A stretch of 33,562 bases of DNA from Oscillibacter sp. (GTDB taxonomy: Bacteria; Bacillota; Clostridia; Oscillospirales; Oscillospiraceae). Below the pieces are notes generated by a model. It worked only from the letters and a program-made list of their open reading frames with translations, searched no databases and had not been told where the DNA came from. The stretch's first letter is position 1. The number at the start of each line of letters is the position of its first letter. Below, one piece after another: positions 7,851 to 32,850 of the stretch. The stretch is from positions 1 through 33,562 of the forward strand of contig JALCRR010000017.1 of NCBI GenBank assembly GCA_022652815.1, in the 5' to 3' direction. A program made the translations under genes and the position numbers.

Positions 7851-7995
7851 TAAAGTCCTCTCACCTTTTTTCAAAAATATGACAAGCACATTCATCAATC
7901 TCTGCCGTTTGTCTCTTAAATGTTCTTCTTTTGAGCATATGTTAAAAAAATACTCTAATTATATGCCGTAATCGATTCATCTGTGCAGGAGGCGG

Positions 7996-8660
7996 TTAAA
8001 CCGTCTCCTGCTTTTTGCGGATTTCCGCAGCCAAATTCTCACGGCTGATCGGCAGGCGGTTGATGCGCACGCCCACCGCATTGTACACGGCGTTGAGAAT
8101 AGCGGGTGCCGTAGCGTTGAGAGGCAGCTCACCCATACCCTTAGCGCCAAAAGGTCCGTAAGGGTGGCCCTCCTCCACCATGATGGGCTGGATATCCAGG
8201 GGGATGTCAGTGAACTTCGGCACGTGCAGACTGGCCAAATCCTTGGTGATGACGACGCCATCCTTCTGGACGAAGTTCTCCTGCAGCGCCATACCGATGC
8301 CCATGGCGACACCGCCTTCAATCTGGCCTTCCACCAGAGCGGGGTTCACAGCACGGCCCACGTCGTTAGCGGCGTAAACACGCAGCACCTTCACCTGCCC
8401 GGTCAGCTCATCCACTTCCACTACAACGACCTGCGCGCAGAAGCAGTAGGAGAAATGCAGGCGGTTTTCCACCATCTTGTTGTCAAAGTTGTCGGAGCAG
8501 GCGTGGTAGGGATGTGTCTCGGGTGCCTCATAGAAAAATTTCTCATAGACCTCAATGCCGGCGGCCTTGGCCTTTTGGGCAAGCTCAGAAAACGACATAC
8601 GGAAAGGCTCATCTGCCCGCACGCCATAAATACCGTCCTTGTTGGAGTCAACGGCATCAA
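7996..8660 (-). pseudogene. molybdenum hydroxylase large subunit (xanthine dehydrogenase family), C-terminal remnant
   Basis: The minus strand encodes about 220 residues from the C-terminal end of a molybdopterin-binding xanthine dehydrogenase/aldehyde oxidase-type subunit. Diagnostic segments are NDVGRAVNP, GQIEGGVAMGIGMALQE, GPFGAKGMGELP (holding the catalytic Glu of the family) and APAILNAVYNAVGVRI. The end at 7996 is natural, but the upstream side breaks off near 8660, where plus-strand GAPDH coding begins. The first 500 or so residues, including the first molybdopterin-binding region, are absent, and no start codon or RBS exists. Members of this family oxidise purines or aldehydes. This copy cannot be functional as seen. 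Confidence 0.85.
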
Positions 8661-12837: not shown

Positions 12838-13368
12838 AGCGAGTATTCCAGAGCGGAAGCAATTGGCATTTTCCCTGTTCCCCCGCCGGAAATGCTCACG
12901 GATTTTATCAGATCACCGCTGTGGGCTCCCTTTATTTTGAGGAGCGGACTGAGCTGAGTGGATGCGGCACATGCTGTGGAGCTGTTGCGGGAGAGCCATA
13001 GCCCCAGGTAAGTAAGCTGAAAATGCCGCCGTGCCAGGCATGCGCGAGCTTTGCCTGCGAAATATATAACGCGGAAAAGGATATGCTGATGCAAAATGCA
13101 CCCGGTGGTCTTGTCTCAATTTGTCCCGTGTGCTTTGTGCACGCCGCTACCCTGCAATTGCCGGAAAGCCCGGCAGTGATGAAGCTGTGGGCTATACGGA
13201 GAAAAAGCTGTCCTGACCGCGCAGGTACTGGGACGTAACTCCTGCTGGGCGGCGATGAGCGATTCAAAGGGCAGGGTTTCCTGTAAGCTGGGCGCCGGGA
13301 AGGGTCACTTCCAGTGGGCGTGATGTTCAATTATATCTGATCAAAGCATTGCCTCGTGAATAGAAATT
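12838..13368. other. 531-base stretch with no recognisable gene
   Basis: All six frames are broken by stops or lack ribosome binding sites. A 71-codon plus frame (13023-13238) contains CQAC and CPVC but has no start signal and no family I recognise. GC content stays high, as in coding DNA, so this is probably a decayed gene or gene scraps between the amidohydrolase and its terminator. Confidence 0.35.
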
Positions 13369-13413
13369 CCAGCCGGGAGATTGTTGAATCATCTTTCGGC
13401 TGGGATTTTATTT
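13369..13413 (+). terminator. intrinsic terminator
   Basis: CCAGCCGGGAGAT (13369-13381) pairs with ATCTTTCGGCTGG (13391-13403) through 13 positions, two of them G-U, and is followed by GATTTTATTT. It ends plus-strand transcription coming from the deoR-amidohydrolase operon and insulates the signalling island. Confidence 0.75.
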
Positions 13414-13810
13414 GACTTGAGAAAAGCAAGACATATCATGTCTGCCCTTTTTGGCTGAATCAGGGGATCATGTGCCAGGCTGTGGCTGCAGCAGCAATGA
13501 TCGTTGCTACTGCGTCGGCGCAAAGAACTGGAGCAGATACAAAAGCGTCCTCCGCTTTTCGTAGATCTTCGCTTTCATGCTGAGCAGCGTTTTGACCGTG
13601 CTCTGCTATATTTTTACAGGCCAAATCGTCAGCCTCTTTCCTTACTGCGTGCATCCGATAGCTGCCTTAAAAAAGCGTTACTGCCAGGTTTGCTTTTTCA
13701 CTTCGTTTTTCAAATAGCAAGCGATTTTTTTACTGAGAATTTAATGGGCCGGTGCTTACCGCGCCTGTTCTGTATAAAAAAAGATAACGGTACATCTTGC
13801 CGCTAATCCA
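13414..13810. other. gene-free AT-richer stretch
   Basis: No gene with a start signal is supported. A 64-codon minus-strand frame (13460-13654) is Ala-rich at its end but has no ribosome binding site or known motif. Runs of A and T increase toward the promoter at 13811. Confidence 0.3.
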
Positions 13811-13839
13811 TTGATATTGTCCGGGATTGAGAGTAAAAT
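13811..13839 (+). promoter_or_regulatory. promoter of the signalling-island kinase operon
   Basis: TTGATA (13811-13816), a 17-bp spacer and TAAAAT (13834-13839) are 5/6 matches to both boxes. The predicted start near 13846 lies just before the riboswitch aptamer, as expected for a riboswitch-controlled transcript. Confidence 0.82.
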
Positions 13840-13848
13840 CAATAAAAC

Positions 13849-13922
13849 GGAATGGCAAATCAGCTAAATGATACAACGCAATGCTATGGGGCTGACTATC
13901 GATGGCAGCCGACTGCAATCGT
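13849..13922 (+). promoter_or_regulatory. cyclic-di-GMP class I (GEMM-I) riboswitch aptamer
   Basis: The conserved GEMM-I blocks appear in order and spacing. GGCAAA lies at 13854-13859. A short hairpin, ATCA/TGAT with loop GCTAAA, fills the tetraloop-bearing stem. ACGCAATGC corresponds to the consensus ACGCAAAGC. GGGGCTGAC is then followed by GATGGCAGCCG, matching the consensus receptor stem and its AUGRCAGCCG strand. The closing stem is weak (about 6 bp with one mismatch and one bulge). The aptamer sits between a strong promoter and an intrinsic terminator and upstream of a histidine kinase gene. Known GEMM-I RNAs bind c-di-GMP. Binding here is inferred from sequence only. Confidence 0.82.
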
Positions 13923-13925
13923 GAT

Positions 13926-13954
13926 GAGCTCTGTGGGAATGCAGGGCTCTTTTT
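13926..13954 (+). terminator. riboswitch expression-platform terminator
   Basis: GAGCTCTG (13926-13933) pairs with CAGGGCTC (13942-13949), with one G-U, followed by five T. It lies between the aptamer and the RBS. CTGCA at 13913-13917, part of the aptamer closing stem, can instead pair with TGCAG at 13940-13944 in the terminator. That would make terminator formation depend on aptamer folding. Confidence 0.8.
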
Positions 13955-13991
13955 GTACATTTCTAAAAAGCCCATGAGGAGGGAACCCCCA

Positions 13992-16900
13992 ATGACAATC
14001 CAAACACAATTTCTGAAAATGTTGGATGCGATGCCCTGCGGTGTGGGAATTTACGAGGAAAGCGCAGAACTGCGAGAGCTTTATTTGAATGACGCTTTTT
14101 TTGAGCTGATTGGATATACCCGCCAGGAATATGCCCTGCTGAAAAGCCGCCCGGCGGAGTCCTATATTGCGCCGGAGGATCAGAAAATTTATGCAGAAAA
14201 TGTTCAGTTAATGCAGAAGCAGGGGTATATCTCTGACTGCGAGTATCGCGTCATCCGCCAGGACCAGACGATACGATGGGTTCAATTAAATATCTCTAAG
14301 ATCATTATGGACGGTGAAGCTGTGTATTTCGCCTCCTTTACCGATATCACCAGAGCGAAGGAGAGCGAACTTGCCAGCGCTTATGCGGAGGATCGGTTTC
14401 AGCTCGTTTTGGAAAATACCAACACGGCGGTTTTTGAGTGGAGTGATCAGACCGGCAATTATTACGGCTCAGGACTGTTTCAGAACTATGCGCTGTCATC
14501 CATTCACGCGGAAAACGCATTCAAAAAGGCCGCGTACAGCGCCGCCGTTCATCCCGGTGATCTTCCGGTTTTTTCTGAATTCTTTAAAAAAATCAGTTTG
14601 CGCCAGGGAAAAGCGGAGTGTGTGCTCCGCCTGAAAATGACCGACGGCAGTTATCGCTGGAGCAGGCTTGTCTGCGTGCTGCTTTCCAAAGAGAAAAAAG
14701 ATGATTTCCGTGTCGTGGGCGCCATCCTGGACATCAATGACGAAATGGAAAAAGCGGCGATTCATCAGGAACTGCTGAAGGCGCTTCCCGGCGGCGTCGC
14801 GGTTTTTAAAATAGCGGACAAGCTGGAGTGCCTTTACTTCAATGATACGCGTTCCTTCTGGAATCGCCGCCTGAACGATGGACTGCAAAAGGCCCTCAAG
14901 AGCGGCGAGCTGTTGAGCGCTATCGTCAAGGAGGATCGGGCGCGATTTGATCAGGAGGTCCTGCAGCGGGCAAGCAAAGGCCTGCCAATTAACATTACCT
15001 ACCGGTACATTCAATCCAGCGGCCATACACAGAACCGTTTTGAGTGGATGCATCTGTCTGCCACAAAGATCCGGGAGGAGGACGGCTGCCCGATTTATTA
15101 TGCCATCATGACGGAACCGCCGCAGGAGAACACCCTCTACCGCAGTATTGTGGAAGATTCTTTGACAGCCGCGATTGTCATGGAACGCGGCACGGGGGCA
15201 ATTTTATTTACCAATCAGGCGTTCCGTGAAATGTTCGGTCAGAGCAAAGATGTTTTGCTGGCTGGGAGGAGCGTACGAGAGGCGCTCGCTCCCGAAGTCG
15301 CCCAGAAGCTTGTGGATCAGGCGGCGCTGCTGGCGGAAGAAGGGATGCTGGAAAATGATTTGCAGACCAGGGAGGGCAGATATCTTCTTTTGAAGGGGAA
15401 GAAGCTATCTTGGAACGGCGTGAACGCCTGCCTTTTCTATATGCAGGATCAAACCGCCCTGCAGAAAAGAAACAACGATCTGCTGCAGCTGATTGACGAT
15501 ATCCCGGGCGGCATCGGCATCAACGAGATTATAGACGGCCATATGGCGCAGATCTACCTCAATGAGGGCTTTTTCCACATACTCGGCACGACCAGGGGCA
15601 CCATGTGCGATTTCACAGAGGAAAAGCATCTGGCCTTGGTTCATCCCGACGACGTACGCCTATTTGCCGAGGGAGTGGAGCGGCTCAATCATGGTGAAAC
15701 ACATATCGATGTCACCTATCGCATGAAGAATGTGGAGCAGGAGTATGTATGGCTCCGCATGATTGGCAAGAAGATTCGGCAGGCCGATGGGCGTACATTC
15801 GTTTATTGCAGCTATTTTGACGTGGATGAACAGACAAAAGGTCAAATTGCTCTTGATAAGGAGCGGACGATCCTGCAGCTTGCCATGCAGACAGCAAAGA
15901 TCAGCTCCTGGGAATATGATGTGCAGGCAAAATGTATCCACCAGGATGCCTCTGCCCAGTTCCAGCACGGGTATGGCGCGACAGTGGAAAATGTACCGGA
16001 CTCCGTGATTGCAGACGGTTTTGTAAACACGGACAGCGTGGAGCTTTACCGCGGACTGTTTCGCCCGATGGTAAAAGCGGATGAGATCATCGACAGCGAT
16101 ATCCATATCAGACGCGCCGACCGGGACGGCTGGTGGTGGGCGCGTGTGATCGTGGTTCCTATTTTCGATCGCAATGGGAAGCATGTCAGCTCCATCGGAG
16201 TGACGATCGACATTACCGAACAAAAAATCATTGAATCCAAGTATGTGCATCAGGTTGAAGCCTTTAACGCTGTAAACGCATCAAACCTTATTGCCAAGGG
16301 ATTCTATAATCTTACAGAAAACAATGCGGAATATTATTACGGCGAGACAGATGACGCTGTCAAGCTGGGCAAAACACATACCTATGATAACGCGCTGCGC
16401 TCCACGGCGACGAGATGCGCGATTCCTGAGGAGGAGCAGGAATTTCTGCGCAGGTTTGGCCGTCAGGAGATGCTGCGTCAGTTTAAGCTGGGCAATCTGG
16501 AAACGGCTTTTGAGTATCAGCGAAAAGCGGAAAACGGCGGCATTATCTGGGTGCAGACCATCGGCAAGCTCTATGCGGGCTTGGATTCCGAAGATGTGAT
16601 GTGTTTTATCTATTCTTACAACATCGACGAGCAGCGGACTGCACGGGAAATGATTGACACGGTGGTCAGGGCGGATTACGACTATCTGGCGCTGCTGGAT
16701 TGCAGAACCGGGGATTATCAGGTGTTTTCCAATCAGGAAGACACAAAAACCCCTCTGCCCCCGTTCCACTCCTCGGATTATGAGCATGAAGTGGCGGACT
16801 ATGCCAGAGCTTACCTGCTTCCGGAAGATGTTGACCGGAATATTCAGGACATGTCCGTTGAAAACATTAAAAAACAACTTGAAAAACAGAATATGTTCGC

Positions 16901-18215
16901 AGCCTACGCCGCCGTCCGGGAAAATGACGGCGGGATCAGCCGAAAAAAGATTCAGTTTTCCTATCTGGACCGCACGCAGGAAAGAGTGCTGATTACACGG
17001 GTGGATATCACCGATGTATATGAACGAGAACAGCAGCAGCTGAAAATCATTCAGGAGGCAAGCCGCGCAAAAAACGACTTCCTCTCTCATATGAGCCATG
17101 ATCTGCGCACACCCATGAATGCGATTATCGGCCTTTCAGAACTGGCGCAGAATGAGCTGAGCGATGCGGAGGCGATGCGGACGTATGTCTCCAATATCCA
17201 GTCCGCCGGTCAGTTCCTGCTGGGACTGGTAAACGACTGCCTTGACTTTGAAAAGCTGGCGTCGCGCAAGATGAAGCTCAAGCCGGTGCCCTATCCCTAT
17301 CAGGAGTTTAGAAACAATATCCTTTTAATGATCGAACCGCTTTGCAGGCAGAAGAAGATTGATTTCTCCTTTAGTGAGGCCGCACCTTATACCGTGTGCA
17401 TCGACAAGGTTCGTTTTGAGCAGATTTTTTTCAATCTTCTTTCAAACGCTGTCAAGTATACGCCGAACGGCGGAAAAATCGAGTTCATTGCCGCCAGCCA
17501 CCTCAGCGAGGACGAAAGCCTTGTGGTCTGCGACTTCTATGTCCGGGACAACGGCATCGGCATGAGCGAAGAATTTCAAAAGCGGCTGTTTGATCCGTTT
17601 GAGCAGGAAAACGAAAGTGAAAATTTCAGACAGCAAGGTACTGGCCTGGGCCTTTCCATCGTAAAAGAGCTGATTGATCTGATGGGCGGCACCATATCGA
17701 TCAAGAGCCGGCAGGGCGAGGGCACAGAGGTAAAAGTACATCTGGATATGCCGAATATCACCGGCCGGGAGTCAAGCCCGCCGGTCAATCGGCCGGCGGC
17801 CGAAAAAGGTCCGCTCACGGGCAAAACCGTCCTGCTGCTGGAGGATCAGCCGCTCAATATGATGATCGCAAAAAAGCTGCTGGAAAACCAGGGCATGAGC
17901 GTCGTCTGCGGAGAAAATGGAGCGCAGGGGCTTGAACTGTTCCAAGGCTCTGCCCCAGGTACATTTGACGCAATCCTTACGGATATTCGTATGCCGGTAA
18001 TGGATGGGCTGGAACTGGCGCGGCAAATTCGCGCATTATCGCGCGGCGACGCACATTCGATCCCAATCATCGCTATGACCGCCAACGCTTTTGAGGAGGA
18101 TGTGCAGGAGTCACGCCGTGCGGGAATGAACGCACACCTTTCAAAACCGATTGAGCCGGAACTGCTGTATCAGACGCTGCGGGACTGGATCTTTCATACC
18201 GGAGAACAAGACTGA
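13992..18215 (+). CDS. hybrid sensor histidine kinase/response regulator with about eight PAS-like domains (HK1)
   Basis: This 1407-residue protein has no signal peptide or membrane helix, so it should be cytosolic. About eight PAS-like modules fill residues 1-1010 (for example MPCGVGIYEE, LPGGVAVFKI, IPGGIGINEI, ISSWEYDV). They are followed by a HisKA dimerisation domain with H1036 in SHDLRTP, then HATPase_c with LLSNAVKYT, DNGIGM and GTGLGLSI, and a C-terminal receiver with D1331 in LTDIRMP. Such hybrids sense small ligands or redox state and pass phosphate His to Asp. The ATG at 13992 has GAGGAGGG eight bases upstream, and in-frame codons back to 13902 overlap the riboswitch. It is the first gene after that riboswitch, and HK2 follows 67 bases later. 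No HPt domain is present. Confidence 0.93.
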   Translation: MTIQTQFLKMLDAMPCGVGIYEESAELRELYLNDAFFELIGYTRQEYALLKSRPAESYIAPEDQKIYAENVQLMQKQGYISDCEYRVIRQDQTIRWVQLNISKIIMDGEAVYFASFTDITRAKESELASAYAEDRFQLVLENTNTAVFEWSDQTGNYYGSGLFQNYALSSIHAENAFKKAAYSAAVHPGDLPVFSEFFKKISLRQGKAECVLRLKMTDGSYRWSRLVCVLLSKEKKDDFRVVGAILDINDEMEKAAIHQELLKALPGGVAVFKIADKLECLYFNDTRSFWNRRLNDGLQKALKSGELLSAIVKEDRARFDQEVLQRASKGLPINITYRYIQSSGHTQNRFEWMHLSATKIREEDGCPIYYAIMTEPPQENTLYRSIVEDSLTAAIVMERGTGAILFTNQAFREMFGQSKDVLLAGRSVREALAPEVAQKLVDQAALLAEEGMLENDLQTREGRYLLLKGKKLSWNGVNACLFYMQDQTALQKRNNDLLQLIDDIPGGIGINEIIDGHMAQIYLNEGFFHILGTTRGTMCDFTEEKHLALVHPDDVRLFAEGVERLNHGETHIDVTYRMKNVEQEYVWLRMIGKKIRQADGRTFVYCSYFDVDEQTKGQIALDKERTILQLAMQTAKISSWEYDVQAKCIHQDASAQFQHGYGATVENVPDSVIADGFVNTDSVELYRGLFRPMVKADEIIDSDIHIRRADRDGWWWARVIVVPIFDRNGKHVSSIGVTIDITEQKIIESKYVHQVEAFNAVNASNLIAKGFYNLTENNAEYYYGETDDAVKLGKTHTYDNALRSTATRCAIPEEEQEFLRRFGRQEMLRQFKLGNLETAFEYQRKAENGGIIWVQTIGKLYAGLDSEDVMCFIYSYNIDEQRTAREMIDTVVRADYDYLALLDCRTGDYQVFSNQEDTKTPLPPFHSSDYEHEVADYARAYLLPEDVDRNIQDMSVENIKKQLEKQNMFAAYAAVRENDGGISRKKIQFSYLDRTQERVLITRVDITDVYEREQQQLKIIQEASRAKNDFLSHMSHDLRTPMNAIIGLSELAQNELSDAEAMRTYVSNIQSAGQFLLGLVNDCLDFEKLASRKMKLKPVPYPYQEFRNNILLMIEPLCRQKKIDFSFSEAAPYTVCIDKVRFEQIFFNLLSNAVKYTPNGGKIEFIAASHLSEDESLVVCDFYVRDNGIGMSEEFQKRLFDPFEQENESENFRQQGTGLGLSIVKELIDLMGGTISIKSRQGEGTEVKVHLDMPNITGRESSPPVNRPAAEKGPLTGKTVLLLEDQPLNMMIAKKLLENQGMSVVCGENGAQGLELFQGSAPGTFDAILTDIRMPVMDGLELARQIRALSRGDAHSIPIIAMTANAFEEDVQESRRAGMNAHLSKPIEPELLYQTLRDWIFHTGEQD

Positions 18216-18282: not shown

Positions 18283-21200
18283 ATGGATGAGCAGAAGTAT
18301 TACCAAATAGAAGAACTGAAAAGCATTTTTTCCGCCGCGCCCTTCGGTATCGCGATATTTATTGCACAGACACGCCAGCCGCTTTTTCTCAATAACGCCT
18401 ATTATCATTTGGTTGGATACGCCCCGGATGAATATGCGAAGTTAATTGCCAATGAGGATCAGAAACTGCTCTATCCTGCTGACCTCCCAATCAGTCGGAA
18501 GAACACAGAGCAGTTTTCCAAAACGGGAAACGTCCCCAACGCACGGTTCCGTATTGTTCGAAAGAGCGGTGAAGTGCGTTGGGTGGCACTGCGCATGATT
18601 CCGGTCACCGTGGATGACGCTGCATGCGCGCTTTGCTTTTTTGATGATATTACCATGGAAAGAGAGCAGTCCGCACAGCTGAAGCTGGTTTCGGAGAGTA
18701 TCGGCAGCAGCATCTGTGTCATGCGTGTCAAAGAGGGAAAAGAACAAATCCTGTACGCAAACGACACGTTTTTCAAGCTGATCGGCATAGATCGGGAACG
18801 CTACCTTGAAAATCCTTCTGTCTTTGACGGCACCTTTACCACGGAGGAGGACCGGATCAGAACGCGCAATGCCATCAAAGAATCCCTGCATACTGGAAAG
18901 CCGCAGGAGCTGACCTATCGTTTCCTGCGGCCGGGATCCGACCCCGTGTGGATGCAGCGGCGTCTATCTGTCCTTCGGGGGGATGGAGAAAACACCTACC
19001 TGATGGCCTCCATCGCAACGGACATCTCCGAGAAGAAAAAAGCTGAGATGGCTCTTGCGCTGAAGCAAAGCCGATACCAACTGGTGGTAGACGAGATGAA
19101 AGCTGCTGTGTTTGAGTGGGATCTCCAGTCCGGCACATTTTACTGCTCGGACAGTTATCGGGAATATGCCATGAGCGCTGTGCCTTCCAATGTGATCCTT
19201 GCCAACAAAGGCCCGGCGGACGTGATTCATCCTGACGATCAGCAAGCGGTGCGGCAGTTTTTCGCCGATACCATGAGCGGAGCACATCGAGCGGAAGCCG
19301 TCCTGCGGATGAGACTGACCGCGGGCGGCTACCGCTGGTGCAAATTGGTGGGTATTTTTTACAGGGATAAAGACGGGAATCCCACGCGCACGCTCGGTAT
19401 GATTATCAACATCAATGAGGAGCGGGAGAAGAGCTTCATGCTGGACAGTCTGCTCAATGAGCTGCCCGGCGGCGTAGCTGTGTTCAAAGTTGGAAAAGTG
19501 CTGAAATGTCAATATTTCAACGACGGTTTCGCAAGACTCTCCAACAGGACGCGGAAGGAATTGAACGCGGTGCTGCAAAGCGGTCAGCTGCTGGAGGCCT
19601 CCATTGCTCCGTCCGATTGGGATCGCTTTCATGAAACGCTTAGAACCAGTCTTGCGCTGGGGGGCCAAATTAACATTACGTTCCGGTTTTTTAATAAGGC
19701 CGGAGAGCTCAGCTGGCTGCATATGAACGCCAGCAAACTGCGGGAGGAGGACGGCTGCCCGGTCTATTACTGTATTTTTACCCGTCCTTCGGACGAAGCA
19801 ACCCTATACCGCAGCGTTGTGGAGGACTCCGCGACCGGTGTATTCATTGGGGAGCGGAAAACACGCCGGATCGTATACCGGAATAAAACAATGCGCGGCT
19901 TCTTCCATGTTGAAGCCGGAACGCCTGTGCTCGGGCAGCCGCTGTTCGATGTCATTCCGCAGAGTTCCGCGCTTTTGAGCGACAACGAGATCGCCTCGCT
20001 TCCGACCGATCATTATGCGGAATACCACTGGCAGCATGAAGGCCGTTATTATAATGTCCGGGCAAAGGCCTTAATATGGAACGGCATAGATGCCTACATC
20101 CTTTATTTATCCGATGAAACACAGGAGCATCAAAAGCGTATCGAGCAGGAGACGCTGCTGAATCAGGTGCCTGTAGGGATTGGAATCTATGAGATCGCTC
20201 ATGGCAATATCCGGCAGCTCTATATGAACGACAGTTATTACCGGATGATCGGCGAACCGCGGGAGACGCGTGAGAAAAAACGTGACAACTTTTTGCTGTT
20301 GGTGCACCCGGATGATCTCGCTCAGGTACATACGCTTGCGGACAGGTGCGCAGCGGGCAGCGAGCAGGAAGTGATCGACCACCGTGTTTTGTGCGGAGAC
20401 GGAAGCTATCGCTGGTTCCGGCTTACCGCATCTGTAGTCAAGCGGGAAAGCGATAAGATCACCGTGTATTGCAGCTACGGCGATATTGACGACGCGATAA
20501 AAACACATCAGGAATTGGAAAGTGCAAACAGCGAGCTGCAAAAGCAGTATCATCAGGAGCTTTCCCAGCGCAAAATGCTGGAGAAAGACAGTATGATAGC
20601 CGTCCAGTTCAACGTCACGCAGGACAGGCTGGTTTCCTATCGAGTCAATCAGGGGATGATAACCCACTTCAGCGACGGGACTGCCGGGATCGACATTCGC
20701 CCCGGTATCGCCGAAAACATCCCAACAGAGGCAGAGCGCCGTGTGGCAAAGGATTTCTTCGACAGGGACAAGGCGCTGGAGCGTTATCGGAACGGCACGA
20801 AGGAGTTCTCAGCTGTATACCGGCGCCGTTTGAACAATGGCCGCCTTTGCTGGCTCCACTCTACCTGCCGCCTGGCGCAGGACGAGGAGAACGGCGATAT
20901 CATCTCCTACACCTATATGCGCAATATCGATATTGAACGCAAAAAGGAACTGACCGCCGAGAGCGTGATTGATGAAGAGACGGACTTTGTTATGCTGCTC
21001 AACACCGTCTCCGACACGGCCATGCTGCTGCGGCTGCAAAACGATTATCAGGGCTTCAGCGGTAAATTGTATCAGGAGTTCCCGTTTGAAAACGCGCTGG
21101 ATATGGGAGAGCTCGACATGATTGAAACGGAGGACCGGCCGATTGTCCGGGCTTTCTTCCGGGAAGAGCCTCTGATCGAGAAGCTGAAAAAGAATCCGGT

Positions 21201-22524
21201 TGTCACTGTCACATACCGGCATTGTCATGCCGACGGCACGGTTCGCTGGAAAAAAACCCGGGCCTTTTATCTGGATGACACACACGAGGATATTGTCATC
21301 GCCCGCAGAGATATTACCGACCTCTATGAGGAAGAAAGGCAGCAGCAGCTTGTTTTGAAAAAGGCGCTTGACGAGGCAAACGCTGCCAACATTGCAAAAA
21401 GCGAATTTCTATCGCGGATGAGCCATGATCTGCGCACGCCGATGAACGTGATCATCGGGCTCACCTCTCTGGCAATGGACATGGCGGGTCAGACCGGGGA
21501 GATGAAGGAAACACTTTCCAATATTGCATACTCTTCAAATTATCTGCTCAGCCTGATCAACGATTGCCTTGACATTGAAAAGATCACCAGCGGGAAAATT
21601 GAGCTGCACCCGGCGCCATATCCCTATTCGGAATTTCGCAGCAGCATTCAATCCGTGATTGCACCGCTGTGCCGGGAAAAGAATATTACGCTGGTTATGG
21701 ATGAACCGTCCGATGTTACGGCGGTAATCGTTGCAGACAGAATACGCCTGTATCAGATTTTTTATAACCTCCTGTCAAACGCCGTCAAGTTCACGCCAAA
21801 CGGCGGAAAGGTCGAAATGCTGACGCGGACGGTTTCCTGTGAAAACGGATATGTGACAAACGAATGTATCGTACGTGACAATGGAATCGGCATGAGCGAG
21901 GAATTCCAGAAACACATGTTTGAAGAATTTTCGCAGGAATCAACCAGCGTTACCGCGGAGTCTCAGGGCACGGGACTTGGGCTGGCCATAGTAAAGCAGC
22001 TGACTGAGCTGATGGGCGCCGAGATGACTGTCAAAAGCAAGCCGCACGAGGGCACAGAGTTCAAGATCCGCTTTCATTTCCCTGAGGGGCAGGAGGCGGC
22101 AGATACGGTCAAAGAGAAGGCCCCTGTTCCCATGGAACGGCTGCGGGGAAAACGCGTGCTGCTGGCGGAGGATCATCCCCTCAACGCGGTGATCGCCCAA
22201 AAATTGCTGGAGAAGGCCGGCATCACTGTGGCGGTGACGAACAATGGTCAGGATGCGGTTGACTGCTTCAAATCCACCCGGGAGGGCTCCTTTGATGCCG
22301 TCCTGATGGATATCCGCATGCCGGTTATGAACGGACTGGACGCGACTCGGGCAATCCGAGGGCTTGATCGATCGGACGCCAAGACGGTGCCGATTATTGC
22401 CATGACCGCAAACGCATTTGATACCGACGTGGAGGGGTCTTTGCACGCCGGCATGAATGCACACCTCTCCAAGCCCATCGAGCCGGAGAAACTGTATGAA
22501 ACGCTTGCCAAATTGATCCGGTGA
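18283..22524 (+). CDS. hybrid sensor histidine kinase/response regulator with about eight PAS-like domains (HK2)
   Basis: This 1413-residue cytosolic hybrid kinase is clearly paralogous to HK1. About eight PAS-like modules occupy residues 10-1020. The HisKA histidine is H1048 (SHDLRTPMNV), then HATPase_c (LLSNAVKFT, DNGIGM, GTGLGLAI) and a receiver with D1343 ([11 protein letters not shown]). Several sensor modules line up with HK1 modules: LPGGVAVFK, INITFRF, LREEDGCPVYY and VEDSATGVF recur in the same order. The N-terminus differs by an additional PAS. The ATG at 18283 follows AGAGGA. The 67-base gap after HK1 holds a CATCAATTGATG palindrome but no promoter or terminator I can support, so it is probably co-transcribed and under the same riboswitch. 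Confidence 0.93.
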   Translation: MDEQKYYQIEELKSIFSAAPFGIAIFIAQTRQPLFLNNAYYHLVGYAPDEYAKLIANEDQKLLYPADLPISRKNTEQFSKTGNVPNARFRIVRKSGEVRWVALRMIPVTVDDAACALCFFDDITMEREQSAQLKLVSESIGSSICVMRVKEGKEQILYANDTFFKLIGIDRERYLENPSVFDGTFTTEEDRIRTRNAIKESLHTGKPQELTYRFLRPGSDPVWMQRRLSVLRGDGENTYLMASIATDISEKKKAEMALALKQSRYQLVVDEMKAAVFEWDLQSGTFYCSDSYREYAMSAVPSNVILANKGPADVIHPDDQQAVRQFFADTMSGAHRAEAVLRMRLTAGGYRWCKLVGIFYRDKDGNPTRTLGMIININEEREKSFMLDSLLNELPGGVAVFKVGKVLKCQYFNDGFARLSNRTRKELNAVLQSGQLLEASIAPSDWDRFHETLRTSLALGGQINITFRFFNKAGELSWLHMNASKLREEDGCPVYYCIFTRPSDEATLYRSVVEDSATGVFIGERKTRRIVYRNKTMRGFFHVEAGTPVLGQPLFDVIPQSSALLSDNEIASLPTDHYAEYHWQHEGRYYNVRAKALIWNGIDAYILYLSDETQEHQKRIEQETLLNQVPVGIGIYEIAHGNIRQLYMNDSYYRMIGEPRETREKKRDNFLLLVHPDDLAQVHTLADRCAAGSEQEVIDHRVLCGDGSYRWFRLTASVVKRESDKITVYCSYGDIDDAIKTHQELESANSELQKQYHQELSQRKMLEKDSMIAVQFNVTQDRLVSYRVNQGMITHFSDGTAGIDIRPGIAENIPTEAERRVAKDFFDRDKALERYRNGTKEFSAVYRRRLNNGRLCWLHSTCRLAQDEENGDIISYTYMRNIDIERKKELTAESVIDEETDFVMLLNTVSDTAMLLRLQNDYQGFSGKLYQEFPFENALDMGELDMIETEDRPIVRAFFREEPLIEKLKKNPVVTVTYRHCHADGTVRWKKTRAFYLDDTHEDIVIARRDITDLYEEERQQQLVLKKALDEANAANIAKSEFLSRMSHDLRTPMNVIIGLTSLAMDMAGQTGEMKETLSNIAYSSNYLLSLINDCLDIEKITSGKIELHPAPYPYSEFRSSIQSVIAPLCREKNITLVMDEPSDVTAVIVADRIRLYQIFYNLLSNAVKFTPNGGKVEMLTRTVSCENGYVTNECIVRDNGIGMSEEFQKHMFEEFSQESTSVTAESQGTGLGLAIVKQLTELMGAEMTVKSKPHEGTEFKIRFHFPEGQEAADTVKEKAPVPMERLRGKRVLLAEDHPLNAVIAQKLLEKAGITVAVTNNGQDAVDCFKSTREGSFDAVLMDIRMPVMNGLDATRAIRGLDRSDAKTVPIIAMTANAFDTDVEGSLHAGMNAHLSKPIEPEKLYETLAKLIR

Positions 22525-22689
22525 CTCCCGCTGCCCTAATCGGCACTTTGTACGGCACATGTCAGCCCCTGTAAAAAAGACTGCGCGGGCACATGCGCCA
22601 GAACTTTTCGGAAATTGCGTCCAAGAGTGTTCGCCAATACTCGGAATTGGGTTCCGGCTCCTATAGGGGCAGGAAACGGAGGCGGTATT

Positions 22690-24354
22690 ATGTTGAAGCG
22701 TGGGGACAGCAGCAAGGAACAGCAGGATCTTCTCTGGTCACTGATTCAAAACTATAACGCGATCTACTATATCAATTTGGAAACGGACCGTTTCACAGTC
22801 CTCTATGCCAATCATGTGGTCAATCAGGACGTCCGCATGGACGGCTTTGAAAAAAAGTTCTTTCATCAGGCAATGGAGGAGTTTGCGGAAACCTACGTTC
22901 GGGACGAGGACAAGGAACCGCTCCTGAGGCTCACAGATTGCGATTATGTCAGAAAACGGCTGAAGAAGGAGGACACCTACGCCTTTCGCTATCGGGTCAA
23001 TCCTCTGAACGGGCTGGAGTTTTTTGAGGTCTGCATGGCGAAGCCCGATGAGGCTTCCAATGAGAATTATGCCATTATGACCGTGCGAAACTGCAACAAG
23101 CAGGCGCGGGAGGAGATGGCGTATCAACTTGAAATTGAGAAACGGAATACAGAGCTCAGCGCAGCCCTCAAAGCCGCAAGCGAGGCAAACAAGTCCAGAA
23201 CAGACTTTTTCGCCCGGATGAGTCACGATCTCCGCACCCCCATGAATGTGATATTGGGGCTGACCGATCTGTCCGCGGATGAAGCGGATTTGGCGCGGAT
23301 GCGTGAAAACATGAAGAAAATCCACACTGCCGGTGAGTATCTGCTCAGCGTCATTAACGACAGCCTGGATTTCCAAAAGATTGAGGCGGGCGGTCTGAGG
23401 CTGAAGCCGGAGATTGTTCGTACGCGGGAGCTGGTCGGGGGAATCACCGATCTGGCAATCCAGGCTAACGGAGGCAAAAACGTAGATGTCAGGCTGCGGA
23501 GCAAGGGCGTGAAGGACGACTCCTATCTGCTGGTGGATCCCATCCGGATCAAGCAGATATTTGTCAATCTTCTCTCCAACGCGATCAAATTCACTCCGGA
23601 GGGAGGGACTGTTGAGATCACCATCGAGGTGGTCGAGCGGGAATCGGCCAGGGTGCATGACCGGATTACCATTGCGGATACCGGAATCGGCATGAGCGAG
23701 GATTTTCTGAAGAACGGGCTTTTCAAGCCCTTCGCACAGGAGTACAACGCACTTACCGCCGGCTACGCGGGGACTGGCCTGGGCCTGTCCATCGCCAAGC
23801 AGCTTTTGGATCTGATGGGGGGAACCATCCGGGTAGAGAGCGAGTTGGGCGAGGGCACGCAATTTACGGTCGATATTGATTTTGCCATCGTGGCGGATGA
23901 GAAAGCGAAGGATCTCATCCGGTCAAAGGCAGAAAAGACGCGTACGCTCGCTCCTGAGCTGGAGGGAATCAGGGTGTTGCTGGTGGAGGATCACCCACTG
24001 AATGCGGAGATCGCCGCAAAGCTGCTAGACAGGGCAGGCTGCGCTGTCACCTGGGCGGAAAACGGAAAACTGGGAGCCGATGCGTTTCGCTGTTCCGATC
24101 TGTTCCATTTTGACGCTGTATTAATGGATGTCCGAATGCCCGTGATGAATGGGGTGGAGGCGGCGAAAGAGATCCGCGGAATGGATCGGAAAGACGCAAA
24201 AGCTGTCCCCATCATCGCCATGACGGCAAACGCCTATGAGGAGGACAGGAAAGCTTCCCTGGAAGCCGGAATGAACGCGCATCTGGCCAAGCCCTTCAAC
24301 CCGCAGGAACTGTATGAAACAATAGAGAAATGTGTGCGGCAGACGAAGCGCTGA
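22690..24354 (+). CDS. short hybrid histidine kinase/response regulator (HK3)
   Basis: This 554-residue cytosolic hybrid kinase has one degenerate PAS-like sensor domain (about 20-145, from YYINLETDRFTVLYANHV to MTVRNCN). A coiled helix leads to HisKA with H179 (SHDLRTPMNV). HATPase_c follows, with LLSNAIKFT, DTGIGM and GTGLGLSI, then a receiver with D480 (LMDVRMPVMNG). It is the minimal member of the four-kinase array and lacks the stacked PAS modules of its neighbours. The ATG at 22690 has GGAGG seven bases upstream. An in-frame TTG at 22615 has no such site. The 165-base gap after HK2 shows no promoter or terminator I can support. Confidence 0.92.
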   Translation: MLKRGDSSKEQQDLLWSLIQNYNAIYYINLETDRFTVLYANHVVNQDVRMDGFEKKFFHQAMEEFAETYVRDEDKEPLLRLTDCDYVRKRLKKEDTYAFRYRVNPLNGLEFFEVCMAKPDEASNENYAIMTVRNCNKQAREEMAYQLEIEKRNTELSAALKAASEANKSRTDFFARMSHDLRTPMNVILGLTDLSADEADLARMRENMKKIHTAGEYLLSVINDSLDFQKIEAGGLRLKPEIVRTRELVGGITDLAIQANGGKNVDVRLRSKGVKDDSYLLVDPIRIKQIFVNLLSNAIKFTPEGGTVEITIEVVERESARVHDRITIADTGIGMSEDFLKNGLFKPFAQEYNALTAGYAGTGLGLSIAKQLLDLMGGTIRVESELGEGTQFTVDIDFAIVADEKAKDLIRSKAEKTRTLAPELEGIRVLLVEDHPLNAEIAAKLLDRAGCAVTWAENGKLGADAFRCSDLFHFDAVLMDVRMPVMNGVEAAKEIRGMDRKDAKAVPIIAMTANAYEEDRKASLEAGMNAHLAKPFNPQELYETIEKCVRQTKR

Positions 24355-24505
24355 CCCTGTCACGACCGGCGACGCATTCGTAAATGCACCGAATAACGGT
24401 GGAATAGCGAACAGCGAATTGTTTAGTGAAGAAAAAACTGTGTATGCAGTGCGAAAATCGAAATTCCGGCATATTACGGCCGACTGAGAAATGGAGGCAG
24501 TGCAT

Positions 24506-27500
24506 ATGAACAGGCAGGATACGGAAAAATGCTATCGCAGCCTCGTGGATCATTTGGGCGGCGGGCTGACCATAACGGAAATTCGAGACGACGGCACACT
24601 TGTCAATCGATTTACCAGCGACGGAATGCTGCGGCTGCTGCATATGACAAGGGAACAGTGGGAGGAGCACCGCGGCGAGAACCTATATGCTAAAGTATAT
24701 CCGGACGATAGGGGCATTGCGCGTGCTTTTTTTGAAAAGCTGCGGGATAATGGCGAAATCCAGTCTGCCATTTATCGCCTCGTATGCGCGGATGGCAGCG
24801 CCGCCTGGGCAAGTATGACCGGTACCTGTACCATTGATCATGGAAAGACGTATATCTACACCGTTCATACGGATATTTCGCAGCAGAAGGAAAGCGAGCA
24901 AAAGGAACGTAATGCAAAGGAGCAACTCGAATCGGTTCTGAGTAGCATCACGTGCGGAATCTGTGCGTATGAGTATTCAGAATCAGAGCAAATAGCGAGA
25001 GTCCTATTCGCAAACCAAAGCTATTATTCCATGTTTGGCTATACAAAGGCACAGTTTGACAGCGAGGTCGCTGATACGCTTTCCCTGGTTTATCCGGAGG
25101 ATTTGCCTAAATTGATGGAACGAATCAGGAAAGCCTATCAGACCGGAGAAATGCAGACACTGGAGTATCGCTGCAGGAAGCGCGTCGGCGAGGTTATCTG
25201 GGTCTCGGCCAATGCCCGGCCGACCAGTATTTTTAGCTCTTCCGAAAAGGTTTTGCTGTGCGAAACAACAGACATCACGCAGCACAAGCAAATGGGGGTT
25301 GAAACAGCCGCAATGCTGGAACAGATCACATTTCTGAACCATGCTGCGGGAGATCTGCTCTCTGGCACAGACGCAGATCCGGCTGTAGATGTCGTTTTGA
25401 TGGATATACTTTGCTTTTTTTCCGGAAAGCGTGCCTATGTCTTTGAATTTGACACGGCGAAGAAAACAGCGTCCAACACCTATGAGGTCTGCGCGCCCGG
25501 AACGGAACCGGCGAAGGATATTCTGCAGGAAGTTCCGTACGCTTCTTTTTCGGTATGGTTCGATCTTTTTGACAGGGATGGCTGCATTGCCATCTCCGAC
25601 GTTTCCGCCTTGGGGAAAGATCGCGTAGTAGAGCGCGGGCTGCTTGAAATGCAGAACATTTCATCGCTGATTGTTGTACCGATGAAAGAGAAGGGGAGAC
25701 TCATCGGCATGATGGGTGTGGATGACCCGGCCAAAAATGTCGACCAGCTTCCGCGGCTGCAGGCAATCGGAGACTATATTTCGGTTATGCTTGCCCGCCG
25801 CAATATGACGAGAGAGCTGCATGACAGCAACTTGCGCATGAAGGCCATGATGAACGACACCCCCGGCGGCTTTGCACAGATGCTGGTCCATGCCGACAAC
25901 AGCATCACCCCGGTTTTTTTCAACGATGGCTTCAGTCAGCTCCTTGGTATGACAAACGAGGAGACGCATCGGCTTTTTGATATGGACGCCTATGCCGGGC
26001 TGCATCCGGAGGACTGTGCCCGGATCGACGGCCTGCTGCGCGATACGATCGAAAAGCGCGGCGCAATAACGACCCGCGTGAGATTATTGACCGGAACAGG
26101 CAGTTATATCACAGTTGAGGTGCATTACTGCGTCTGGGAGAACCCGGATGGCAAATTATTTGTCAATGGCTATTACCGCGATATCAGTGACAGGCTGGCA
26201 CAGGAGGAGGAATACCGCCGCAATATTGCCTACCGGGATATTACAGGCAAAAGCGCCATCGACTCTTATCACCTGAACGTGACGCAGAATATCATTGACG
26301 ACTGCGTGTCTGAGGAACCCCGTATCAGGGCGCTTGGCGAAGAAGGCACCATAGACGGCTTTTTGAATCGCTGCGCAGCGGTGCAGATTGAAAAAGAGCA
26401 TGAAGCGTTTATAGCTCTGTTCTCCCGCAAATCGCTGCTTACATCGATAGCGCAAGGCAACAATCAGATATCACTGGAGCATTACCTGCTTCTGCCGCCG
26501 GATAAAACGATTTGGCTCCGTACGACTGTTGACCTTTTTAAAAACCCGGAGACCAACGATGTGGAAGGCTTCATTTACGACCGTGATCTGACTGAAGAAC
26601 ATATGCTGCATGAAATGATGAGTACCGTTGTGAATGTCAGTTACGATTTCATCATCTCAATCTGCGTAAAGACGAAGCTTTACCGCACGTTTATCGCCAG
26701 TTCCGGCATTGTTACCGCCCTTCACGAGACAGGGGTTTACGATGATGATCATACCATCCACGCGCTGCTGGCCATTGTCCATCCCGATGACAGAGAAATA
26801 ACATATAGCGCGATGCGCATTGAAAACCTTGTACATCAGCTGGAGGACAAAAACAGCGCCGAATTCCGGTATCGCGTTGTGATTGACGGCGAAACAAAGC
26901 ATAAGCGCTGCACCTACGCATATTTAAATGACAATCGGGAGTATATCATTCTCTCCCGCGTAGATGAAACGGAGACGGTGCAGCAGATGCAGGCGGCACT
27001 GGAAAAGGCGAAAAGCGCCAGCCGTGCCAAGAGCACCTTCCTTTCCAACATGAGCCATGAGATTCGCACGCCGATGAACGCAATCATCGGGCTGACGCAG
27101 CTTACTCTTGACGATGGGGCGCTCAGTGCTGATGCAAGGGGGAATCTGGAGAGTATCCGGGATTCCAGTAATTATTTATTGAGTATCATCAACGAGATCC
27201 TTGATATGAGCCGTATTGAAAGCGGGACATTCACACTGAACTGCGCCTGGACGCCCATCAATGAAATACTGAGCCAATGCGTGGAGATGATGCTTCCCGC
27301 TATGGAGGCGAAGCATATCACCTTTGAATACCCCTCCGGCACCAATGCTTTGAACTATGAGTATTATGTGGACGGGCTGAAGACCAAACAGATGCTCATG
27401 AACCTGCTCAACAACGCCTGCAAATTCACCGGGGAGAACGGGCATATTCGACTGAGTTTCAAGAACAAATGCCACGACGACAACACTTCCACCGACTACG

Positions 27501-28195
27501 TAATTGTGGAGGACGATGGCTGCGGCATGAGTGAAGCGTTTCTCAAGCGGATTTTCACCCCATTTGCCCAGGAGCGCAGTACCTTTTCAGCCTCTGCGCA
27601 GGGAACGGGCCTTGGACTTGCGCTTGCCCGCCAGATTGCCCGCGCCATGGGCGGCGATATCACCGTGGAGAGCAAGCTGGGTATCGGCTCCACATTTACG
27701 ATTGAGTTCCCTTATCAATACAGGAGAAGTGACAAACTGGCGGCGGCTGCCGGCGCCGGGATGATAGAAAGCCAGGCAGCACTGGAAGGGTGCCGCATCC
27801 TGCTCTGTGAGGATAATTATCTCAACACCGTTATTGCCCGGAAACTACTGGAACAGCAAGGCTGCATCGTGGATACTGCTGAAAATGGACGTCTCGGCGT
27901 GGAGCAATTTGCCGCCTCAAAACAGGGGAAGTACGACGCCATCCTGATGGATATCCGGATGCCGGAGATGGACGGGCTTCAGGCAGCAAGAGCGATCCGT
28001 GCACTGGACAGACCCGATGCGAAGGCCGTGCCCATTATCGCTATGAGTGCCAACGCTTTTTACGAGGATGTACAGGAGAGCATTGAGGCGGGAATGAACG
28101 CTCATTTGACCAAACCAGTAGATCCGCAGAAGATGTATCATACGCTGAAAGAAAACATTAGCCGCGCAAAGCAGAGGGGTGGATATAAGCGATAG
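24506..28195 (+). CDS. hybrid histidine kinase/response regulator with PAS and GAF domains (HK4)
   Basis: This 1229-residue cytosolic hybrid kinase has PAS-like modules at about 5-120 and 135-250. A GAF domain follows at about 260-440 (SSLIVVPMKEKGRLIGMMGVDDP), then three more PAS-like modules to about 820. HisKA has H851 in SHEIRTPMNA, unlike the SHDLRTP of HK1-HK3. HATPase_c has LLNNACKFT, DDGCGM and GTGLGLAL, and the receiver has D1149 (LMDIRMPEMDG). GAF domains often bind cyclic nucleotides, haem or other small ligands, and the ligand here is unknown. The ATG at 24506 has GGAGG eight bases upstream and is preferred to the ATG at 24491. The last gene of the array, it is followed by a weak AAGCCC/GGGCTT hairpin near 28310. 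Confidence 0.92.
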   Translation: MNRQDTEKCYRSLVDHLGGGLTITEIRDDGTLVNRFTSDGMLRLLHMTREQWEEHRGENLYAKVYPDDRGIARAFFEKLRDNGEIQSAIYRLVCADGSAAWASMTGTCTIDHGKTYIYTVHTDISQQKESEQKERNAKEQLESVLSSITCGICAYEYSESEQIARVLFANQSYYSMFGYTKAQFDSEVADTLSLVYPEDLPKLMERIRKAYQTGEMQTLEYRCRKRVGEVIWVSANARPTSIFSSSEKVLLCETTDITQHKQMGVETAAMLEQITFLNHAAGDLLSGTDADPAVDVVLMDILCFFSGKRAYVFEFDTAKKTASNTYEVCAPGTEPAKDILQEVPYASFSVWFDLFDRDGCIAISDVSALGKDRVVERGLLEMQNISSLIVVPMKEKGRLIGMMGVDDPAKNVDQLPRLQAIGDYISVMLARRNMTRELHDSNLRMKAMMNDTPGGFAQMLVHADNSITPVFFNDGFSQLLGMTNEETHRLFDMDAYAGLHPEDCARIDGLLRDTIEKRGAITTRVRLLTGTGSYITVEVHYCVWENPDGKLFVNGYYRDISDRLAQEEEYRRNIAYRDITGKSAIDSYHLNVTQNIIDDCVSEEPRIRALGEEGTIDGFLNRCAAVQIEKEHEAFIALFSRKSLLTSIAQGNNQISLEHYLLLPPDKTIWLRTTVDLFKNPETNDVEGFIYDRDLTEEHMLHEMMSTVVNVSYDFIISICVKTKLYRTFIASSGIVTALHETGVYDDDHTIHALLAIVHPDDREITYSAMRIENLVHQLEDKNSAEFRYRVVIDGETKHKRCTYAYLNDNREYIILSRVDETETVQQMQAALEKAKSASRAKSTFLSNMSHEIRTPMNAIIGLTQLTLDDGALSADARGNLESIRDSSNYLLSIINEILDMSRIESGTFTLNCAWTPINEILSQCVEMMLPAMEAKHITFEYPSGTNALNYEYYVDGLKTKQMLMNLLNNACKFTGENGHIRLSFKNKCHDDNTSTDYVIVEDDGCGMSEAFLKRIFTPFAQERSTFSASAQGTGLGLALARQIARAMGGDITVESKLGIGSTFTIEFPYQYRRSDKLAAAAGAGMIESQAALEGCRILLCEDNYLNTVIARKLLEQQGCIVDTAENGRLGVEQFAASKQGKYDAILMDIRMPEMDGLQAARAIRALDRPDAKAVPIIAMSANAFYEDVQESIEAGMNAHLTKPVDPQKMYHTLKENISRAKQRGGYKR

Positions 28196-28426: not shown

Positions 28427-28657
28427 ATGGCTGATAAACGAGTAAGAAGAACGGCTGAGGAATTGGCGGCGGAGGCAGATCGAAAGATCGAGCTCCACAA
28501 GCACGCGATTGCGGAGCTGGAGCAGCGAAAGAAAAAACTGCTCAACCCCAAGCCCCGCATTTCCAAAGCGGCGCAAATGAAAAAGCTTCTGGACAAGGCC
28601 AGAAAATCCGGCATGAGTCCCGACGAGATCGCGCAGAAGCTGGGCTTCGGGGACTGA
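28427..28657 (+). CDS. small basic helical protein, unknown function
   Basis: This 76-residue protein is rich in Lys, Arg, Glu and Ala. The N-terminal 40 residues form a likely coiled coil (EELAAEADRKIELHKHAIAE), then a basic linker (KLLNPKPR). The C-terminal helix pair is KARKSGMSPDEIAQKLGFGD, which resembles a small helix-turn-helix tail. This could bind nucleic acid or act as an adaptor, but I recognise no family. The ATG at 28427 follows GAGGAG with eight-base spacing. It has its own promoter and a strong terminator, so it is monocistronic, placed between the kinase array and the c-di-GMP enzyme. Confidence 0.82.
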   Translation: MADKRVRRTAEELAAEADRKIELHKHAIAELEQRKKKLLNPKPRISKAAQMKKLLDKARKSGMSPDEIAQKLGFGD

Positions 28658-28672
28658 CAGGACTGCTGTATG

Positions 28673-28718
28673 AAAGAGCAGGGACGCAGGCTAATTTGCC
28701 TGCGTCCCTGCTCTTTTT
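28673..28718 (+). terminator. intrinsic terminator
   Basis: AAAGAGCAGGGACGCAGGC (28673-28691) pairs perfectly with its complement at 28698-28716 across a TAATTT loop and runs into further T. It ends the small basic protein transcript and separates it from the c-di-GMP enzyme gene. Confidence 0.92.
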
Positions 28719-32814: not shown

Positions 32815-32850
32815 AAAAGGGACGGCGCCGCGGCGCCGTCCCTTTTTTTA
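32815..32850 (+). terminator. intrinsic terminator, probably bidirectional
   Basis: AAAAGGGACGGCGCC (32815-32829) pairs with GGCGCCGTCCCTTTT (32832-32846), followed by more T. It sits ten bases after the plus-strand stop and just after the stop of the convergent minus-strand kinase, where the A-run becomes a U-tract, so it can serve both genes. Confidence 0.92.

What the first reader, a model, noticed from the sequence alone, without database searches (positions are those of the whole stretch)
13811..13992. A c-di-GMP riboswitch with a terminator controls a hybrid histidine kinase array
Promoter, GEMM-I-like aptamer, five-T terminator and RBS follow in order within 180 bases. The closing-stem strand CTGCA (13913-13917) can pair with TGCAG (13940-13944) inside the terminator. 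Formation of the aptamer would therefore free the terminator, which predicts an OFF switch: high c-di-GMP reduces kinase transcription. GEMM-I riboswitches are known before motility, adhesion and c-di-GMP enzyme genes. Control of a run of giant PAS hybrid kinases would be unusual. Order and motifs are seen; ligand and direction are inferred.
Basis: partly seen in the sequence, partly recalled or inferred. Interest (0 to 1): 0.88.

Follow-up and report, generated by a model that had tools for sequence, protein, structure and literature searches.

The report
Terminator-controlled leader before sensor-kinase genes
A short untranslated stretch with a real stop signal for RNA synthesis sits in front of a run of large sensor-kinase genes and probably throttles them, but its sequence does not support the claim that it senses the signal molecule c-di-GMP.

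Summary
The terminator (13926-13949 plus T5) is real: under a strict rule only three loci in the window qualify, against 0.07 expected. It stands 21 bases before the ribosome-binding site, so by position it is an attenuator. The stretch before it can form a competing antiterminator of equal energy (-31.7 against -31.5 kcal/mol), matched by 44 of 1000 shuffles.

The c-di-GMP aptamer is not supported. RF01051 gives 14.6 bits against a cut-off of 35. A model of 26 GEMM-I aptamers from the same genus gives 16.7 bits: E 0.022 in the window, 1.44 in the genome. Apparent chance hits reach 20-22 bits. The GNRA loop is absent; in Cd1, mutating the tetraloop abolished binding (PMC9262584). No relative of the leader was found, and two homologous kinases have leaders without a hit. 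Core strings and position would fit a decayed or diverged GEMM-I; chance explains them about as well.

The parts
13811..13839 (+). promoter-like site TTGATA-17-TAAAAT
   Evidence: such sites are no more frequent than in shuffles, so weak alone
13844..13920 (+). GEMM-I-like stretch, sub-threshold: GGCAAA 13854-13859, ACGCAA 13876-13881
   Evidence: RF01051 14.6 bits, cut-off 35; genus model R1 16.7 bits, E 0.022 in the window
13859..13872 (+). P2-like hairpin AUCA/UGAU with six-base loop GCUAAA, no GNRA
   Evidence: pairs listed
13884..13893 (+). 5' strand of the predicted antiterminator (partner 13927-13936)
   Evidence: pairs; probability 0.31 to 13955, 0.95 or more to 14030
13890..13910 (+). 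P3-like local hairpin GGCUG-CUA / UGGCAGCC that excludes the antiterminator
13926..13954 (+). intrinsic terminator, 10 pairs, then TTTTT
   Evidence: (-14.5 kcal/mol)
13944..13973 (+). possible post-terminator hairpin GGGC/GCCC; not above chance
   Evidence: 387 of 1000 downstream shuffles
13976..13983 (+). ribosome-binding site GAGGAGGG
   Evidence: read
13992..18215 (+). hybrid histidine kinase 1 (PAS repeats, HisKA, HATPase_c, REC)
18283..22524 (+). hybrid histidine kinase 2 (PAS repeats, HisKA, HATPase_c, REC)
22615..24354 (+). hybrid histidine kinase 3 (HisKA, HATPase_c, REC)
24491..28195 (+). hybrid histidine kinase 4 (PAS repeats, HisKA, HATPase_c, REC)

Best explanation
13840-13990 is a transcription-attenuation leader. 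RNA polymerase starting upstream must cross a real intrinsic terminator (13926-13954) before it reaches the kinase genes. In the nascent RNA 13884-13893 can pair with 13927-13936 (antiterminator, read-through), or fold back as a local hairpin (13890-13910) that leaves the terminator free (stop). The two states are nearly equal in energy, so whatever stabilises or disturbs the upstream part could set kinase expression. The signal is unknown; the c-di-GMP-I resemblance is most likely chance or the relic of a decayed GEMM-I aptamer. Shown by computation: terminator, order of parts, two competing folds, sub-threshold aptamer score. Inferred: promoter, start point, regulation, one transcript for the four kinases.
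For: Strict terminator scan: 3 loci in the window, shuffle mean 0.07. No promoter-like site between the one at 13811 and the one at 13992 on the + strand. Two folds of -31.7 and -31.5 kcal/mol; 44 of 1000 shuffles reach this balance; 41, 31 and 57 of 1000 in variants. RF01051 14.6 bits against 35; genome-wide E 3.2 for RF01051 and 1.44 for the genus model. The two short ORFs tested in the leader have codon usage of non-coding frames.
Against: The antiterminator is only about 1 in 23 by chance, and no homologous leader was found to test it. The downstream hairpin is not above chance (387 of 1000). The promoter is no better than background. The genus model gives E 0.022 within the window, with no other hit there at E <= 10, exactly between promoter-like site and terminator, which favours a GEMM-I origin more than pure chance would.
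Confidence: 0.6

Rival explanations
1. A diverged but working c-di-GMP-I (GEMM-I) riboswitch of the OFF type: ligand holds the P3-like hairpin, the antiterminator cannot form, and the terminator stops the kinase transcript.
For: Only Rfam family at E <= 10 in the leader; only hit of the genus model in the window, E 0.022. GGCAAA, ACGCAA and CUGC are kept, which by recalled Vc2 numbering include G20, A47 and C92; 15 of 18 columns invariant in the genus are kept in the fitted alignment (counted by hand). GEMM-I is common in the genus (28 of 61 genomes over the cut-off). Class I switches of C. difficile act as OFF switches (PMC6200980, passages).
Against: 14.6 bits against a cut-off of 35; weak hits that read as coding or as a plain hairpin reach 21.9, 20.7 and 22.6 bits. 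Loop GCUAAA instead of GNRA, mismatches in P2 and at the base of P3; in Cd1 the A24-26U mutant showed no binding (PMC9262584 section 17). Leaders of two homologous kinases lack it. None of 28 genus GEMM-I leaders examined was seen to precede a histidine kinase, though 4 of the 28 gave no clear gene.
Confidence: 0.1
2. Terminator without a signal: it simply lowers kinase expression, or ends a short RNA made from the promoter-like site; both the antiterminator and the GEMM-I likeness are chance.
For: The antiterminator balance is reached by 44 of 1000 shuffles. No related leader was found, and no such leader was seen before the other kinases of the genome.
Against: A terminator directly before the ribosome-binding site of its own gene suggests control rather than waste (general knowledge); the two folds balance closely.
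Confidence: 0.2
3. Antitermination by an ANTAR protein, or by ribosomes translating a short leader ORF.
For: The genome encodes an ANTAR domain (63.8 bits). A 41-codon ORF spans the terminator (13852-13977), and an 18-codon ORF (13868-13924, read by hand) stops just before it.
Against: The six-base loop is GCUAAA, not the A1/G4 loop of ANTAR targets (pattern recalled). Codon scores of the two ORFs are -0.28 and -0.08, against about +0.41 to +0.43 in frame in known genes; the 41-codon ORF has no Pfam match; by eye the 18-codon ORF has no ribosome-binding site.
Confidence: 0.08

Closest known systems
c-di-GMP-I (GEMM-I) riboswitch, Rfam RF01051; OFF type such as Cd1 of C. difficile
   Same: GGCAAA and ACGCAA core strings in order, a P3-like hairpin, terminator as expression platform, predicted OFF direction
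   Different: score far below the cut-off, no GNRA loop, mismatched P2 and base of P3, kinase genes downstream instead of the secreted-type proteins that dominate in this genus
Transcription attenuators with mutually exclusive terminator and antiterminator
   Same: terminator between promoter-like site and ribosome-binding site, alternative fold of nearly equal energy
   Different: signal unknown; no conservation data

Membership tests
c-di-GMP-I riboswitch (RF01051) | covariance-model score at or above the gathering score (35 bits) | tested here: not met
   no match at gathering; 14.6 bits
c-di-GMP-I riboswitch (RF01051) | P2 hairpin with GNRA tetraloop | tested here: not met
   loop is GCUAAA; P2 columns mismatched
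c-di-GMP-I riboswitch (RF01051) | tetraloop receptor in P3 | tested here: inconclusive
   P3 is short with loop UCGA; but L063 and L069, with an even shorter P3, score 63.3 and 59.8 bits, so by this count it is not obligatory
c-di-GMP-I riboswitch (RF01051) | nucleotides that contact the ligand (G20, A47, C92 in Vc2 numbering, recalled) | tested here: met
   aligned as G, A and C; a fitted alignment, and the lower strings also recur in hits inside genes (L002)
c-di-GMP-I riboswitch (RF01051) | conserved pairs at the base of P3 | tested here: not met
   non-standard pairs marked; one base missing
c-di-GMP-I riboswitch (RF01051) | covariation among homologous leaders | not testable with these tools
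   no homologous leader found
c-di-GMP-I riboswitch (RF01051) | c-di-GMP binding | not testable with these tools
   needs in-line probing
transcription attenuator leader | intrinsic terminator between promoter and first gene | tested here: met
   for the terminator, position; the promoter itself is unproven
transcription attenuator leader | mutually exclusive antiterminator | tested here: inconclusive
   near-equal energies, 44 of 1000 shuffles; 41, 31 and 57 of 1000
ANTAR-regulated leader | hairpins with six-base loops having A at 1 and G at 4 (recalled) | tested here: not met
   the one six-base loop of the fold is GCUAAA

The most novel reading that the evidence does not exclude
A strongly diverged c-di-GMP-I aptamer without GNRA loop still works as an OFF switch, with the 5' strand of its P3 doubling as the antiterminator, and lets c-di-GMP shut down a run of four hybrid histidine kinases.
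Probability: 0.1. Interest if true: 0.7.

Novelty: new member of a known kind. Interest (0 to 1): 0.22.

Why it matters
A working c-di-GMP switch here would tie the second messenger to the supply of two-component sensors and show how far GEMM-I can drift. As it stands, the finding is a probable attenuator before sensor-kinase genes and a caution: GGCAA...ACGCAA occurs 53 times in this genome, against 31 for the reversed pattern, so the core strings alone do not identify the family.

Tried and rejected
Rejected: CTGCA/TGCAG as antiterminator (probability 0.0). N-terminal extension of the kinase from ATG 13902: codon score -0.14, and homologue L076 has an in-frame TGA eight codons before its start (read). 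Membership in the genus's A20 GEMM-I group: model R2 gave 12.0 bits, less than R1. A shared leader with other kinases of the genome: nine upstream stretches in L079-L082 were printed and no GEMM-like core was seen before a start; model R1 over 14 loci gave only the known C9 aptamer and a 10.9-bit match at L079:4548-4595 that overlaps a kinase start. DNA relatives: the best short match, G025 (E 4.2e-4), lies in what reads as a purL-like gene; L010 and L109 read as coding and L018 and L112 as unrelated sequence; L110 and L111 were only scanned with R1 (best 8.9 bits).

Limits and mended steps: 'reads as coding' is by eye except where Pfam is cited. The 15-of-18 count is by hand on an alignment fitted to the model. 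One search used a wrong constraint and is replaced; one search printed the antiterminator probabilities one base off register (zeros), and one search gives the right ones. The shuffle mean comes from 30 rounds of two shuffles of the + strand. My notebook calls all weak genus hits coding; that is too strong: the C42 hit is a plain hairpin (L106) and L150 is unclear.

Literature seen: search listings; passages of PMC9262584 and PMC6200980; section 17 of PMC9262584. In these listings I saw no title or abstract start that reports a c-di-GMP riboswitch before hybrid kinases; the one paper and the five were not opened.

Full report
What was checked. The leader was read, scanned against Rfam, searched for in its own genome and relatives, folded and compared with GEMM-I aptamers of the same genus through two covariance models built here.

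The aptamer claim. No Rfam family reaches its gathering score in the window. With permissive filters on 13741-14040 RF01051 is the only family at E <= 10: 14.6 bits (cut-off 35), E 1.8, 13844-13920. In the own genome the same place has E 3.2; one real member exists at C9:52378-52462 (72.4 bits), and the other two weak matches, of 21.9 and 12.9 bits, read as lying inside genes (secG-like and livM-like). The genus is rich in GEMM-I: 28 of 61 genomes pass the cut-off. A model from 26 of these aptamers, the window left out, gives 16.7 bits and E 0.022, with no other hit in the window at E <= 10, but E 1.44 in the genome, behind a plain hairpin of 20.7 bits on C42.

Controls. I read 13 weak hits beside the window's own. 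The five of 23 bits or more (L099, L102, L103 twice, L104) sit in leaders or leader-like places and look like degraded GEMM-I copies. The other eight, 14.3 to 20.7 bits, read as coding, except the C42 hairpin. Of 16 weak R2 hits, 16.9 to 22.6 bits, most read as coding by eye; L150 is unclear. The E-value scan of the whole window lists a Glutamine riboswitch match antisense in a kinase ORF at E 0.64 and does not list RF01051. So the score of the window element lies within the noise, and only its place, between a promoter-like site and a terminator, speaks for it.

What is kept and what is lost. In the fitted alignment 15 of 18 columns that are invariant in the genus are kept (by hand): GCAAA, CGCAA, and single positions in P2 and P3 among them. 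Lost are the GNRA loop (a six-base loop GCUAAA instead), the G-rich 3' strand of P2, the A after ACGCAA, and one base at the foot of P3. In Cd1 the tetraloop mutant A24-26U showed no c-di-GMP binding (PMC9262584, section 17). The retained strings are those that a model rewards, and a hit inside a gene keeps much the same (L002).

The terminator and the competing folds. A strict scan (8-12 uninterrupted pairs, at least 5 G-C, T run directly after) finds three loci, all on the + strand: 7985-8011, 13926-13949 and 32816-32845; shuffle mean 0.07. The laxer scan gives 17 sites against 15.6 expected, so only the strict rule separates this site from background. Between the T run and the ribosome-binding site lie 21 bases, and one search lists no + strand promoter-like site between those at 13811 and 13992, so the kinase transcript must almost certainly cross the terminator. 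The leader has two near-equal folds: hairpin 13890-13910 plus terminator (-31.5 kcal/mol), or 13884-13893 paired with 13927-13936 (-31.7). For RNA up to 13955 the terminator has probability 0.68 and the antiterminator 0.31; up to 14030 these are 0.04 and about 0.95. With the upstream part shuffled, 44 of 1000 reach the energy balance, 41 of 1000 the probability at the T run and 31 of 1000 that of the longer leader; with both sides shuffled 57 of 1000; with only the downstream part shuffled 387 of 1000. The antiterminator is weakly supported, the downstream hairpin is not.

Conservation. No DNA relative of 13800-15800 at E <= 1e-8 was found in the other 85 of 86 genus genomes. Of 394 order genomes six match the leader at E <= 0.01, the own genome among them; the other five are short matches, three of which I read and found coding or unrelated. 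The first 500 residues of kinase 1 have no match at E <= 1e-40 outside the own genome in 394 genomes. Two named homologues of kinase 1 (best segments 45 and 46% identical, L075 and L076) have leaders without a GEMM-I hit; L075 keeps only 110 bases before the match. Covariation could not be tested.

Genes. Four hybrid histidine kinases follow on the same strand, with gaps of 67, 90 and 136 bases. A REC-EAL-GGDEF protein (28969-32805) comes 773 bases later, behind a hairpin of z-score -10.2 with a T run (28673-28718). Of 28 GEMM-I leaders of the genus (by eye) 21 precede secreted-type proteins, two HD-domain proteins (Pfam run for L063 only), one a GGDEF remnant (L066); three gave only short doubtful ORFs and one ran off its contig.

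Verdict. A real terminator and a probable attenuator before sensor kinases. A relic or a much diverged aptamer is not excluded.

Noticed in passing
L063:1501-1574 (+), L064:856-939 (-), L066:1501-1583 (-), L069:1501-1574 (-): 4 of 26 genus GEMM-I aptamers have A at the position equivalent to G20 (AGCAAA), recalled as a change that permits cGAMP. L063 precedes an HD-domain protein (Pfam HD_5), L069 a similar protein by eye, L066 a GGDEF remnant. The model of this group has six hits of 75.9 bits or more in 5 of 86 genus genomes. In L063, L066 and L069 the aptamer's 3' strand looks like the 5' arm of the terminator, which would predict ON switches (by eye).
   Followed up: partly
13810-13818 and 13835-13843: Inverted repeat ATTGATATT / AAAATCAAT, 89% complementary, overlaps both promoter-like hexamers; a possible operator.
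   Followed up: no
28427-28718: A 76-codon ORF without a significant Pfam match, followed by a very stable hairpin with a T run (z-score -10.2), between the kinases and the EAL-GGDEF gene.
   Followed up: partly
28969-32805: REC-EAL-GGDEF-PAS protein followed by a strong terminator at 32816-32845.
   Followed up: no
12838-13810: About 1 kb without a clear gene: five ORFs tested in this stretch (one of them starting at 12798) had no Pfam match at E <= 1.
   Followed up: partly
L103, L104, L102, L099: Sub-threshold GEMM-I copies of 23-34 bits in leaders or leader-like places of the genus, apparently degraded.
   Followed up: partly
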